The notes beneath the pieces were generated by a model, which had not been told where the DNA came from, searched no databases, and worked only from the letters and a program-made list of their open reading frames with translations. Positions 17,035-21,075 of a stretch of 37,971 nucleotides of DNA are shown here, one piece after another; position 1 is the stretch's first letter, and the number at the start of each line of letters is the position of its first letter. Source of the stretch: Bacillota bacterium (GTDB lineage Bacteria; Bacillota_I; Bacilli_A; RF39; UBA660). A program made the translations under genes and the position numbers. The stretch is taken from contig JAETPN010000013.1 of assembly GCA_021771185.1 (NCBI GenBank), forward strand, positions 1 to 37,971. Reading direction: 5' to 3'.

Positions 17035-19560
17035 TTATTTTTCAGAATCTATTACTTCCTTATAAATAAAATACTTATGCTTGAAAGATTCTATTCCACC
17101 CTCAAGATAGTTAATAATATGCGTTTTAATATTTTTTTCATTTGGATATCCAGTTGTTTTTATCCAACCATTAATATTATCGGATTCCATTATAATCACT
17201 TGCTCAGCTTTAGCATTTGTAACAATAGTAGCATTATGGGTTGCAATAATTATTTGCCTTTTGGATTTTATTTCCTTTAATTTTTGCACTAAATTTTTAT
17301 AAATGTATTGATTATCTAAATTATCTTCTGGCTGGTCTATAACCAAAGGGCTATAATCACCAGAAAAGTCGCTAAATCCTAAAACAAATGATAACATAGC
17401 AACAACCTTTTGTCCTAGGGATAGTTCCCTAACACTCTTATATATTACTTTTTGTTCTTTCTGTTCTTTATTATTTATATTGAATTCTAAATCAAAACTT
17501 TCAATTTCTTTTATATATTTTCTTAAACTATCAATTATAGCAGGAATATTATCATTATTTATAATGTCTTTGGCAATGGATTCTACTAACTTCAGTAATT
17601 CATCATCTTTGACAAATTCAATTTGTTCATCGATTAATTTTTGACTTTTTCCTTCCAAAAAGATTTTAATAGATATAATCTTTTCTAATTCTTCATAACT
17701 ATTGTTAATAAATAATAATAACATTCTCTCTAATCCAAGTTTATCATTAAGTGCTTCTAAATAATCCACTATGCTTAAAGTAGAAATGTTTTTCTTTTTA
17801 TAATAACAATTATTCCTTATAGGATATTTTCTTGAAATTAGTTCTCTTATGTTCAGAACATTTAAATTATTTTCTTCTTGTTTATAAATAATTCTTAATA
17901 TTCCTTTTTGACTATCATTAAATTTTGTTACAACTTCTTCTACTTCTTTTTTTCTTAAATCTCTAATACTAGACACTTCTTGTAATTTTTTCCTTAATCC
18001 ATTAATCGATTTAGTGCGTATAGTATTTTTTACAGATGATAATGTTTTATTTTTAAATAGGGTATTGTAAATATAGTCATTTATTTCATTACTATTTGAA
18101 GTCTCAACCAATTCATTTATAGAATATGCTGTGCTAAATACATCATCTAAATACTTTCTTTTATTACTAACTGGTTTACTATATAAAATTCCTTTACTTT
18201 TTTTAAGTTCATAAACTGTAATACATCTTTCTAATAAAAATTGTTTTATTTGTTCATTATAAAACTTGTATTTATAATTATATTTTGGACTATACGGACT
18301 AAAACATTTTAAAATACTATCGTCTTCATATTCTTTTTGTGGATTATATAATTGTATCATATATTCTTTATTATTTATTTCAAAAAGTAACCAAATAGAT
18401 GCATGTCTACAAATTAAATCTAACATTTCTTCATTTTTTACAGCTTGCTGAATAGTATATTCAATAATATTAATAATAGTACTTTTTCCAGTACCTCTAC
18501 CTCCAATAAAACAATTTAAATATTCTGAAAATGATATACAAAAATCTTTATTATTTTTTCCTTTTAAAAAACCTTTCCCATTATTTCTAATAACTAGTCC
18601 TTTAATATATTTTTGGGGAACATGTGGGACATTATGTTCTATACAAATATTATAATCTCTTAAAGCACTTGCAACCATATTATAATTTCTATTGTTTCCT
18701 TTTAACCAAAAAATATTTTTCCCTATTTCTTCTAATGAATGTGAATCCTCATCTATAACATAGCAAAAATCTTTATCAGAATAATCTTTTATTCTATTTG
18801 AAATTTTTGATAAATTTTCTTTGTTAGCAAGACCAATAACGTATAAATTTTCTATACCAAATAACTTGTTCTTATAAGCGATATTTAAAAATTTAGAATC
18901 TTTAAAAAAATCTGAATTATCAAAGTGAGCAATGTAGGAAATTCCTTTCCACTCATTAATTTGTTTAATAACCTCTAAACTGGTTAAATATGTTCCTTCT
19001 TCCTCACTCATTATATATTCTTTTAGCCATTGATTAATTTTTTTATTTATATTAATGTCATTATCACTAAAAATACCAACAACGTGATTTTTATCAGCAC
19101 AACTAATTTCTATACCCATAATAAGTTCTGTATATGTATTTTGCTTTATTGTATTGTTTAAAATTTTAATTGCTTGTAACAATTTTTGATAACCATTAAT
19201 ATTGTTGTGGTCTGTTACTAAAACTATTTCAATATCATTATCAGCCAATTTCTTTGCAATTAATAAATATGCCAGAAACTCTTTCTTTGAATTAAAAATT
19301 TTTATATCATCATTATTTTCAAAATCAAAATTAAATCTTTCTAACATCGGCAATTCACTTTTTGTGTAAGTATATATTTCATCATTGCTACATTCTTTAT
19401 AATAATTTACATATTTAGAATGATTTAATAATCTAAAATCGTGAGAAGCAGGTGTGTGTAGATGAAATATTGTTTTATGATATTTACCAAACTTCTTTTT
19501 TTCTTCAATTATTTTTTTATACATTTTTGCTAATTCATAATTTGCTTTAGTATATCCCAT
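17035..19560 (-). CDS. PHP phosphoesterase fused to an SMC/ABC-type ATPase (TrlF/Ppl-like defence protein)
   Basis: 841 residues. The N-terminal third is a PHP domain with its metal-binding set: FHLHTPASHD (32-41), VTDHN (115-119), GIEIS with E151, H159, AHFD (211-214), and D270-H274 in DEDSH. Residues 345-841 are an ATPase: Walker A GGRGTGKST (353-361), a helical/coiled insertion (about 480-700), ABC signature LSLGQK (713-718), Walker B LVIDQPEDNLDN and switch ATHNATI with H775. The DQPEDNLD form is typical of RloC/PrrC-like and other defence ATPases. PHP-SMC proteins are known antiphage genes under the names TrlF and Ppl (recalled, not searched). PHP domains cut phosphoesters, so a nuclease activated by the ATPase is inferred. 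It follows the kinase gene by 24 bp, with ribosome binding site GAGGT. Confidence 0.88.
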   Translation of the reverse strand: MGYTKANYELAKMYKKIIEEKKKFGKYHKTIFHLHTPASHDFRLLNHSKYVNYYKECSNDEIYTYTKSELPMLERFNFDFENNDDIKIFNSKKEFLAYLLIAKKLADNDIEIVLVTDHNNINGYQKLLQAIKILNNTIKQNTYTELIMGIEISCADKNHVVGIFSDNDININKKINQWLKEYIMSEEEGTYLTSLEVIKQINEWKGISYIAHFDNSDFFKDSKFLNIAYKNKLFGIENLYVIGLANKENLSKISNRIKDYSDKDFCYVIDEDSHSLEEIGKNIFWLKGNNRNYNMVASALRDYNICIEHNVPHVPQKYIKGLVIRNNGKGFLKGKNNKDFCISFSEYLNCFIGGRGTGKSTIINIIEYTIQQAVKNEEMLDLICRHASIWLLFEINNKEYMIQLYNPQKEYEDDSILKCFSPYSPKYNYKYKFYNEQIKQFLLERCITVYELKKSKGILYSKPVSNKRKYLDDVFSTAYSINELVETSNSNEINDYIYNTLFKNKTLSSVKNTIRTKSINGLRKKLQEVSSIRDLRKKEVEEVVTKFNDSQKGILRIIYKQEENNLNVLNIRELISRKYPIRNNCYYKKKNISTLSIVDYLEALNDKLGLERMLLLFINNSYEELEKIISIKIFLEGKSQKLIDEQIEFVKDDELLKLVESIAKDIINNDNIPAIIDSLRKYIKEIESFDLEFNINNKEQKEQKVIYKSVRELSLGQKVVAMLSFVLGFSDFSGDYSPLVIDQPEDNLDNQYIYKNLVQKLKEIKSKRQIIIATHNATIVTNAKAEQVIIMESDNINGWIKTTGYPNEKNIKTHIINYLEGGIESFKHKYFIYKEVIDSEK

Positions 19561-19584
19561 TTTATACCTCACAATCTCTATTTA

Positions 19585-21075
19585 TTAATTATTATTTTTA
19601 TCATAATAATCAAATCCTTTTTTCATAACTTCATAAGTATTATCAAAATCATCATCATAAAAACTAGAATTTTCTTTATGACCAACTATATAACCTTTTT
19701 TTTCTAATTCTTCTATGGCACTAATCCATTCAGCTTTTTCTCGTATAGATATTGCACCAAAATTTAATTTTAATGTACCACAAACAAATTCTTGTTGATA
19801 ATTTCCATTTTCTGTGTACATAAAGCCATCTTTATCAATACTACTAAATAATATTTTTTTGGCTTTTTCACTTATGAAATCATCACTAATCTCATTTGTA
19901 TTACTTTCAATATTTCCAATTTTTTGTATATCTATAATAATTTCACTTATATTATTATATCTTTTTTGTAAATCTCTATCTATACATTTAGAAACTATAT
20001 TATAAATATTACTATCATCGGCTTTTAAATGAGTTCTTCCTGTAAAAATAAAGTAAAGAATTATACCAACACTATATATTTCATTTTTTACATTATAATC
20101 TTTAAAACTAGTTAATGTATCATCAATTAAAGTCCCTCTAATTTCAGATTCGGTTCTTGTTAATTTTAAGTCCATATCTTTAACTAAACCGAAATCCGAC
20201 AATTTTAGTATCAAAATATCATTATCATATAATTTTATTAAAATATTGTTATAACTAATATCTCTATGTAAAATTTTTTTAGAATGCAAATAATTTAATG
20301 CTACCAAAAATTTTATTGCTAATTTTTTTCTCTTTTTAATATTAAATTCTGATTTATTATTATTCATTTCAATATATTTTCTTAATGTAAAATCACAATA
20401 TTCCATTATATAACTATTATCTTTCTCATTATAAGTATAAACTTTTAATACATAAGGATGTTTTATTCTATTCATTATTTCAAATTCATTTTTAAATCTT
20501 ATTTTCTCTTTATCGCCAACATTGCCTTTTAATCTCTTTATAGCAAATTTTTCATTATAAAATTCGTCAATATATAAAAGAACATTAGCATAAGCTCCAT
20601 TACCAATTAATTTAGTTTTAAAGTTAGTAATGCTTCTGTTATTCGTTATAATTACATCATTATTCATTTTAAAAATAGGTTCATATTTGATTATTGTAAA
20701 TCTTTTATAATTATTTGGAATCTCACTACCACCCGAAGATGATAGAAATGTCTCAGAATATTCTAAAAACCTTTCATAATCTCCATTTAAATTGAAACTT
20801 AGATTAGTATTTTTAAGCATCGTTTGTAATTCTTGGATAGTTTCTATAATAAATAATAATTCTCGACTTTCATTCGCATTATAATGACTATTTGATTTAC
20901 TTTTATCATTCATAAAATTTATCAGTTCATTAAGATTCTGATGCAAATAGGAAAAAATGTGTTTTAATCTCTCATCATAATTACTATATATATCTATATA
21001 TAATTTTGAAAAATTATAATTTTTTATTTCATTATATAAAATATTTGCTAATGCTATATCTACACTCTCTGCCAT
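19585..21075 (-). CDS. Hanks-type protein kinase with C-terminal winged-helix-like domain
   Basis: 496 residues. Residues 1-115 are a helical N-terminal region. The kinase domain (about 150-385) has the glycine loop IGNGAYANVLL (157-167), catalytic lysine K180 in FAIKRL, alpha-C acidic residues near 197-199, HRDISYNN with D272 and N277, and DFG 294-296, so it should be active. The usual APE motif after the activation segment is not seen. Residues 400-490 (ISEKAKKIL...REKAEWISAIEELEKKGYI) resemble the C-terminal winged-helix-like module seen in many bacterial conflict proteins. There is no membrane segment, unlike the housekeeping PknB/PrkC. It is first in an operon with the PHP-ATPase, suggesting the kinase senses infection or regulates that enzyme. 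ATG 21075 follows GGTGAT. Confidence 0.88.
   Translation of the reverse strand: MAESVDIALANILYNEIKNYNFSKLYIDIYSNYDERLKHIFSYLHQNLNELINFMNDKSKSNSHYNANESRELLFIIETIQELQTMLKNTNLSFNLNGDYERFLEYSETFLSSSGGSEIPNNYKRFTIIKYEPIFKMNNDVIITNNRSITNFKTKLIGNGAYANVLLYIDEFYNEKFAIKRLKGNVGDKEKIRFKNEFEIMNRIKHPYVLKVYTYNEKDNSYIMEYCDFTLRKYIEMNNNKSEFNIKKRKKLAIKFLVALNYLHSKKILHRDISYNNILIKLYDNDILILKLSDFGLVKDMDLKLTRTESEIRGTLIDDTLTSFKDYNVKNEIYSVGIILYFIFTGRTHLKADDSNIYNIVSKCIDRDLQKRYNNISEIIIDIQKIGNIESNTNEISDDFISEKAKKILFSSIDKDGFMYTENGNYQQEFVCGTLKLNFGAISIREKAEWISAIEELEKKGYIVGHKENSSFYDDDFDNTYEVMKKGFDYYDKNNN

What the first reader, a model, noticed from the sequence alone, without database searches (positions are those of the whole stretch)
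17035..21075. Two-gene kinase + PHP-ATPase operon: candidate antiphage system
A Hanks-type kinase (catalytic K180, HRD and DFG all present, winged-helix-like C-terminus, no membrane anchor) is followed 24 bp later by an 841-residue PHP phosphoesterase fused to an SMC/ABC-type ATPase with the DQPEDNLD Walker B typical of defence ATPases. PHP-SMC proteins alone are known defence genes (TrlF/Ppl). A dedicated kinase partner would add a sensor or switch, with phosphorylation triggering or holding back the nuclease. The surroundings (broken genes, Fic, tRNA 3' end) suit a defence island.
Basis: partly seen in the sequence, partly recalled or inferred. Interest (0 to 1): 0.85.

Follow-up and report, generated by a model that had tools for sequence, protein, structure and literature searches.

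The report
Kinase–nuclease remnant of mobile cassette
This bacterial genome holds two intact genes, a protein kinase and a predicted DNA-cutting ATPase, left over from a three-gene mobile cassette that likely protects cells from phages; in the relatives examined outside this cassette the two genes were never found together, so they likely work separately rather than as one switch.

Summary
The two genes are real, intact and exactly placed. The ATPase (17035-19572, minus) is a full-length Spaf_1101-family PHP-SMC/Rad50-like protein (902.7 bits, cut-off 475), related to the antiphage protein Ppl and to TrlF but under both cut-offs. The kinase (19585-21084) belongs to an unnamed kinase family: helical N-terminal domain, complete but unusual kinase domain (HRDxS), and here a winged-helix-like tail.

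The pairing is not a recurrent two-gene system. Kinase and ATPase sit together only in one cassette (three genomes; a fourth, L002, shows only the kinase's end at its contig edge), 92-93% identical; 0 of 7 other opened ATPase loci and 0 of 18 other kinase loci pair them. The full cassette has three genes: macro-domain protein, kinase, ATPase. In the window the macro gene is deleted, leaving about 15 codons. The cassette lies between Fic and a complete tRNA-Trp, which are neighbours in a same-genus genome without it.

Best reading: two separately acting defence genes carried together. The kinase family, found as different versions in one cargo slot of three related viral contigs, is the most interesting lead. 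Phage defence itself is untested.

The parts
16905..21281 (-). stretch shared with the cassette of L003/L004: 92-93% identical up to 21166, 78-83% beyond; the transferred unit, macro deleted
   Evidence: blastn; GC 0.224 against 0.298 for window 1-15000 plus 22301-37971
17035..19572 (-). PHP phosphoesterase fused to SMC/Rad50-type ATPase, Spaf_1101 family; ATG start at 19560
   Evidence: NF045781 902.7 bits (cut-off 475); model: PHP part like Endonuclease Q, ATPase part like SMC/Rad50 heads
19585..21084 (-). protein kinase with helical N-terminal domain (1-142), kinase domain (about 155-390) and winged-helix-like C-terminal domain (401-498); ATG start at 21075
   Evidence: PF00069 118.6 bits; model pLDDT 82.1; alignment A1
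21117..21166 (-). 3' remnant (about 15 codons) of a macro-domain gene; deletion junction at a short microhomology
   Evidence: intact copies in L003 and L004, L003 copy PF01661 58.5 bits (cut-off 22)
21265..21778 (-). overlapping short ORFs that look like pieces of one broken gene, between the cassette and the tRNA
22314..22389 (-). complete tRNA-Trp gene bordering the island
   Evidence: ARAGORN
15441..15935 (-). Fic adenylyltransferase gene (looks frameshifted near its start); other border of the island, neighbour of the tRNA in G028

Best explanation
Window 17035-21084 is what remains of a mobile three-gene cassette (macro-domain protein, protein kinase, PHP phosphoesterase fused to an SMC/Rad50-like ATPase) whose macro gene has been deleted here, and the kinase and the PHP-ATPase are likely two separately working antiphage genes carried together rather than a kinase-switched nuclease. 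Predicted working of the ATPase (inferred from fold and from Ppl): the SMC/Rad50-like half would bind DNA ends and nucleotide, and the PHP half, shaped like Endonuclease Q, would cut or degrade DNA when phage infection exposes ends or drains nucleotides. Predicted working of the kinase (inferred): the more variable helical N-terminal domain would sense a phage product, and the kinase domain would then phosphorylate host or phage proteins and stop growth, as described for the kinase Stk2. Shown here: the cassette, its spread over three genera at higher identity than the chromosome, the macro deletion, the purifying selection on both genes, and the absence of the partner in all other loci opened.
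For: PHP-ATPase family and fold; 25 motif positions (11 PHP ligand candidates, 14 ABC residues), picked knowing the invariant list, are invariant in 24 of 24 aligned proteins. Kinase K183, E200, H273, R274, D275 invariant in 31 of 31, DFG in 30 of 30 with a letter. Cassette 92-93% identical while the tRNA-Trp region of G673 is 68-75% identical to the window, one 24-bp piece aside; window, G673 and G064 carry different genus labels. Empty site: in same-genus G028 Fic and tRNA-Trp are 53 bp apart. L002 carries the ATPase gene, a resolvase-like and a 570-aa recombinase-like ORF and then an intact-looking Fic. Partner absent elsewhere. Separate fates inside the cassette: macro lost in the window with the other two intact; the L004 ATPase has an in-frame stop (codon 488) while its kinase is conserved (dN/dS 0.116 against L003). 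Different kinases in one slot of three viral contigs. Ppl mechanism: PMC12904381, section 5 read.
Against: No defence assay for either family was found in what I saw. Kinase and ATPase are co-oriented, 24 bp apart, and stay together in all 3 cassette copies where both can be read, which a joint system would do too. The L004 stop could be an assembly error. The kinase gave no match in 50,697 phage records at E 1e-20. Ppl's mechanism belongs to a protein whose model our ATPase misses widely (156.8 of 1000 bits). The neighbourhoods of the nearest ATPase relatives below the cassette (P0122, 79%; P0123, 78%) were not seen, so an older pairing is not excluded.
Confidence: 0.5

Rival explanations
1. 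The kinase is a dedicated sensor-switch: it phosphorylates the PHP-ATPase (or a shared target) and so releases or restrains the nuclease; the first reader's reading.
For: Co-oriented, 24 bp apart; together in three genera (window, G673 = L003, G064 = L004), and L002 shows about 58 bp of the kinase 3' end before the ATPase at its contig edge; both under purifying selection.
Against: 0 of 7 other ATPase loci and 0 of 18 other kinase loci show the pair; 8 of 9 kinase-bearing genomes searched gave no Spaf_1101 ATPase at E 1e-10.
Confidence: 0.2
2. The unit is a three-part system: the macro-domain protein binds or removes an ADP-ribose mark, the kinase and the PHP-ATPase act with it, and the window carries a disabled or simplified copy.
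For: Macro, kinase and ATPase genes lie in one short run in L003 and L004; macro dN/dS 0.24 between L003 and L004.
Against: This macro protein was found only in the cassette copies L003/G673 and L004/G064 among the loci scanned and in no plasmid record at E 1e-10; its loss in the window left the other two intact and conserved.
Confidence: 0.12
3. Cargo for the element itself: the genes help the mobile element persist (for example by excluding rival elements or plasmids) and have no role against phages.
For: Relatives of both genes sit on plasmids, an ICE-like record and viral contigs; kinases occupy one slot in three viral contigs.
Against: In the window the element's recombinases are not seen but both genes remain intact, so they are kept without the element.
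Confidence: 0.13

Closest known systems
Spaf_1101 family AAA-like ATPase (NCBIfam NF045781)
   Same: Full-length match 2-835 of 836, 902.7 bits against a cut-off of 475; relatives on plasmids and an ICE-like record.
   Different: The other members opened stand without this kinase. The name occurs in one paper of the library, a genome paper that gives the gene only as a transposon boundary (passage seen).
Ppl (E. coli antiphage PHP exonuclease)
   Same: PHP nuclease plus NTPase in one chain; matches NF042955 and PADLOC Ppl.
   Different: Far below the Ppl cut-off (156.8 of 1000 bits); Ppl is a single-gene system (PMC12904381, section 5 read).
TrlF family AAA-like ATPase (NF045780)
   Same: Related ATPase half; best stretch 469-836.
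   Different: 213.6 bits, under the cut-off of 350.
Stk2 antiphage kinase (PADLOC PDLC02375)
   Same: Kinase of about 500 positions; 102.9 bits over 41-424.
   Different: The N-terminal domain alone gives no Stk2 match; mad6 scores higher than Stk2. Stk2 facts are from passages; the original paper was not seen.
Endonuclease Q and Rad50/SMC heads (folds)
   Different: Here both folds are in one chain; identity 18% and 14% in those two rows.

Membership tests
Spaf_1101 family (NF045781) | whole-protein score over the curated cut-off of 475 bits | tested here: met
   902.7 bits, 14-840 against 2-835 of 836
Spaf_1101 family (NF045781) | PHP ligand candidates and ABC motifs (Walker A, signature, DQPED) intact | tested here: met
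   25 positions checked, each invariant in 24 of 24 aligned proteins; the 24 are the window plus 23 of the 120 listed relatives
Ppl | score over NF042955 cut-off of 1000 bits | tested here: not met
   156.8 bits
Ppl | nucleotide-restrained 3'-5' exonuclease active on ssDNA ends | not testable with these tools
   biochemistry; described for Ppl in PMC12904381
TrlF family | score over NF045780 cut-off of 350 bits | tested here: not met
   213.6 bits
Stk2 | kinase domain match | tested here: met
   102.9 bits, E 4.2e-30; many other kinase models match too, so this is not specific
Stk2 | N-terminal domain of the same family | tested here: inconclusive
   residues 1-150 alone: only PDC-M26A at E 0.0021, no Stk2 match; absence of an HMM match does not exclude distant kinship
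MADS kinase mad6 | score over NF047741 cut-off of 460 bits | tested here: not met
   62.5 bits
recurrent two-gene kinase + Spaf_1101 system | the pair recurs in independent lineages | tested here: not met
   only in one cassette lineage; 0 of 7 other ATPase loci, 0 of 18 other kinase loci; nearest unopened relatives could still change this
antiphage defence system | reduces phage infection | not testable with these tools
   needs plaque assays

The most novel reading that the evidence does not exclude
The kinase founds a new, widespread class of phage-sensing kinases: a fast-evolving helical N-terminal sensor coupled to an unusual HRDxS kinase and sometimes a winged-helix tail, traded in and out of cargo slots of viral elements and plasmids; in this cassette it was joined to a macro-domain protein and a Ppl-like PHP-Rad50 nuclease to make a three-part phospho/ADP-ribose-controlled defence system.
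Probability: 0.15. Interest if true: 0.75.

Novelty: new variant of a known kind. Interest (0 to 1): 0.47.

Why it matters
Spaf_1101 ATPases recur on Gram-positive mobile elements and I found no described function for them in the library searched. A strongly conserved member in a defined cassette gives a testable unit. The accompanying kinase family has no name in the libraries scanned, spans three bacterial phyla, and in three viral contigs different versions sit in one slot, so it is a good candidate for a new class of phage-triggered kinases. It also shows that a neat two-gene operon need not be a two-component system.

Tried and rejected
Rejected: a recurrent kinase-ATPase partnership (no recurrence in what was opened). 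Rejected: Fic as part of the defence island; in G028 it sits beside tRNA-Trp without the cassette. Not found: a copy of the tRNA 3' end at the far border; the longest exact word shared between 22281-22345 and 15801-17000 is 9 nt, and the 20 repeat families shown of 46 were AT-rich, inexact pairs. Tried: matching longest-contig lengths between the two protein lists as a proxy for context; I saw none that coincide among the 120 + 120 rows listed, but the cassette's own two clusters (72,799 and 46,522) do not coincide either, so the test is worthless as negative evidence. The contexts of the 79% and 78% ATPase relatives (P0122, P0123) and of the tailed kinases P0004-P0031 (except P0023, taken as G749 by its contig length) remain unseen.

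Led nowhere: fold searches of the kinase returned kinase chains in the rows shown (model about 140-398), so the N-terminal and C-terminal domains are untested by fold. A macro search of plasmids and a kinase search of phage records found nothing. H4 (Enterococcus gilvus) was listed but not opened. In the family sample 24 of 26 genomes with an ATPase-model hit were under the cut-off and were not counted as Spaf_1101. The 18 kinase loci are those outside the cassette with 150 bits or more to my model in one ORF; of the 80 viral loci six (L044-L049) reach that and 74 were dropped. Of the 18, L175 (G491) matches without the N-terminal domain, and L044, L173, L184 and L188 have only a few hundred bases upstream. 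The G137 and G206 hits have stops inside, fell under 150 bits in one ORF and were dropped.
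Full report
Observation. On the minus strand, 19585-21084 encodes a 499-aa kinase and 17035-19572 an 845-aa PHP-ATPase; from the ATG starts the proteins have 496 and 841 aa and 24 bp between them. Pfam finds a kinase domain (118.6 bits) and, just or well under their cut-offs, SMC_N, AAA and PHP matches in the ATPase. NCBIfam places the ATPase in the Spaf_1101 family at 902.7 bits (cut-off 475); TrlF (213.6 of 350) and Ppl (156.8 of 1000) are missed. PADLOC's Ppl model is the best match of the window's ATPase and matches 24 of 24 aligned relatives; for the kinase mad6 and Stk2 lead in the window and match 31 of 31, but kinase models match one another through the shared domain.

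The cassette. L003 and L004 read macro-domain protein (PF01661, 58.5 bits for L003), kinase, ATPase, co-oriented, with gaps of 23 bp by the ORF-list starts. Both lie in an element with a resolvase and a 529-aa recombinase (Pfam-tested in L003; the L004 stretches are 94-95% identical). In L002 about 58 bp of the kinase 3' end align at the contig start (the first 50 bp of the contig do not align), followed by the ATPase, an 83-aa ORF, a 200-aa resolvase, a 119-aa ORF, a 570-aa ORF that reads as a large serine recombinase, a 97-aa ORF and a 180-aa Fic; so a kinase in L002 is likely but not seen whole. The window shares with L003/L004 only 16905-21281, apart from one 54-bp piece elsewhere, and at 21161-21166 the alignment jumps from just upstream of the macro gene to its last codons: the macro gene is deleted at a short repeat, leaving about 15 codons and the stop. 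Between window and G673 the tRNA-Trp region is 68-75% identical but the cassette 92%, so the cassette has moved between genera. In the same-genus genome G028, Fic (L209 7446-7991) and tRNA-Trp (8045-8120) are 53 bp apart with no cassette; in the window about 6.3 kb separate them. L002 suggests how it came there: cassette and recombinase-like gene beside Fic.

Is the pair a system? ATPase side: 0 of 7 other opened Spaf_1101-type loci (250 bits or more with my model; not all scored with NF045781) have the kinase: G465 (L035/L178), plasmids of Streptococcus agalactiae (ATPase in two pieces), Bacillus arachidis, Enterococcus faecalis and Lactiplantibacillus pentosus, a Streptococcus suis phage/ICE record, and viral contig L124. 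Kinase side: 0 of 18 other loci at 150 bits or more have the ATPase in the stretch held: L041, L044-L049, L184-L188, and G130, G155, G491, G749, G733, G763. Nine kinase-bearing genomes were searched whole at E 1e-10: only G673 has a Spaf_1101 ATPase (G749 is 83% complete, so a miss is possible). Sampled genomes: family 117, kinase 2 (E 1e-30) and ATPase 2 over cut-off, the same two; phylum 392, kinase 6 and ATPase 2 (E 1e-40), sharing only the window's genome; order 385, kinase 6 and ATPase 3, the three being the window, G673 and G064. On this evidence the pairing is one event, since inherited and transferred as a block, not a recurrent partnership.

Selection. Pairwise dN/dS is 0.12-0.17 for the kinase and 0.11-0.12 for the ATPase (three pairs each), and 0.24 for macro (one pair). 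The L004 ATPase has one in-frame stop (codon 488); decay or assembly error.

The kinase family as a lead. Relatives occur in Bacillota, Actinomycetota and Campylobacterota. Of the 31 aligned proteins 23, the window included, have 80 or more residues beyond position 405, and 8 have 0-3. In three viral contigs (L046, L047, L049; hosts not named in the calls, Bacillus-like by reading) a kinase sits before the same small ORF: shared backbone pieces are 82-96% identical, while the kinase proteins are 39-48% identical; L047 and L049 also share an 81% identical DNA piece that covers the second half of the kinase and the stretch after it, and the ORF just upstream differs in L049. Over the 45 pairs of ten chosen kinases the N-terminal domain is less conserved than the kinase domain in 44 and tied in 1. 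This fits a sensor under pressure to change, though relaxed constraint would look alike. Against a wide role in phages: no match in 50,697 phage records at E 1e-20.

Mechanism. For the ATPase the nearest described case is Ppl: a single-gene 3'-5' ssDNA exonuclease, held back by NTPs and triggered by nucleotide depletion plus 3'-OH ends (PMC12904381, section 5). The shared layout makes a DNA-end nuclease the most likely function; this is inference. For the kinase, passages name Stk2 as a defence kinase (PMC8791490) that phosphorylates essential cellular pathways (PMC12322248); membership in Stk2 is not shown. Because neither family had the other beside it in any locus opened outside the cassette, because the macro gene could be lost, and because the kinase stays conserved beside a possibly broken ATPase, I take the two as separate defence genes travelling together (0.5). 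A kinase-switched nuclease is kept at 0.2.

Literature limits. Spaf_1101 occurs in one paper of the library, as a transposon boundary gene (passage). Searches for PHP domain, defence system and TrlF (none), TrlF with phage (none), Ppl/PHP with kinase or SMC, Stk2 and macro domain with kinase and phage defense listed, by titles and abstract starts, no paper on a kinase-PHP or macro-kinase-PHP unit; two searches listed 12 of 13 and 12 of 72. Most subscription papers and all bioRxiv preprints are missing from the library.

Noticed in passing
window 15441-15975: Fic gene appears frameshifted near its start: the first codons are in one frame and the rest in another, while L209 and L002 have 180-181 aa open copies. 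PADLOC lists this Fic type as candidate PDC-S04.
   Followed up: partly
L046 5944-7149, L047 5893-7119, L049 6001-7200: Three related viral contigs carry different members of the same kinase family in one slot before the same small downstream ORF; L047 and L049 are 62% identical in the kinase domain but 24% in the N-terminal domain.
   Followed up: yes
L003 13302-14342: An Mrr-like restriction endonuclease (PF04471) lies directly after the large serine recombinase of the element, and a DUF4268 gene (2872-3795) lies before the cassette.
   Followed up: no
L041 and plasmid hits: A ~390-aa member of this kinase family without the ATPase sits on Campylobacter plasmids (62 of 91 plasmid records matched at E 1e-20); one was opened.
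   Followed up: partly
window 16238-16849: 203-aa ORF with a hydrophobic N-terminal stretch by reading, no Pfam match at 0.01, between Fic and the cassette.
   Followed up: no
L195 2622-6472: Kinase relative in G733 is followed, after a short ORF, by two adjacent ORFs (362 and 353 aa) that read like DNA methyltransferases; not scanned.
   Followed up: no
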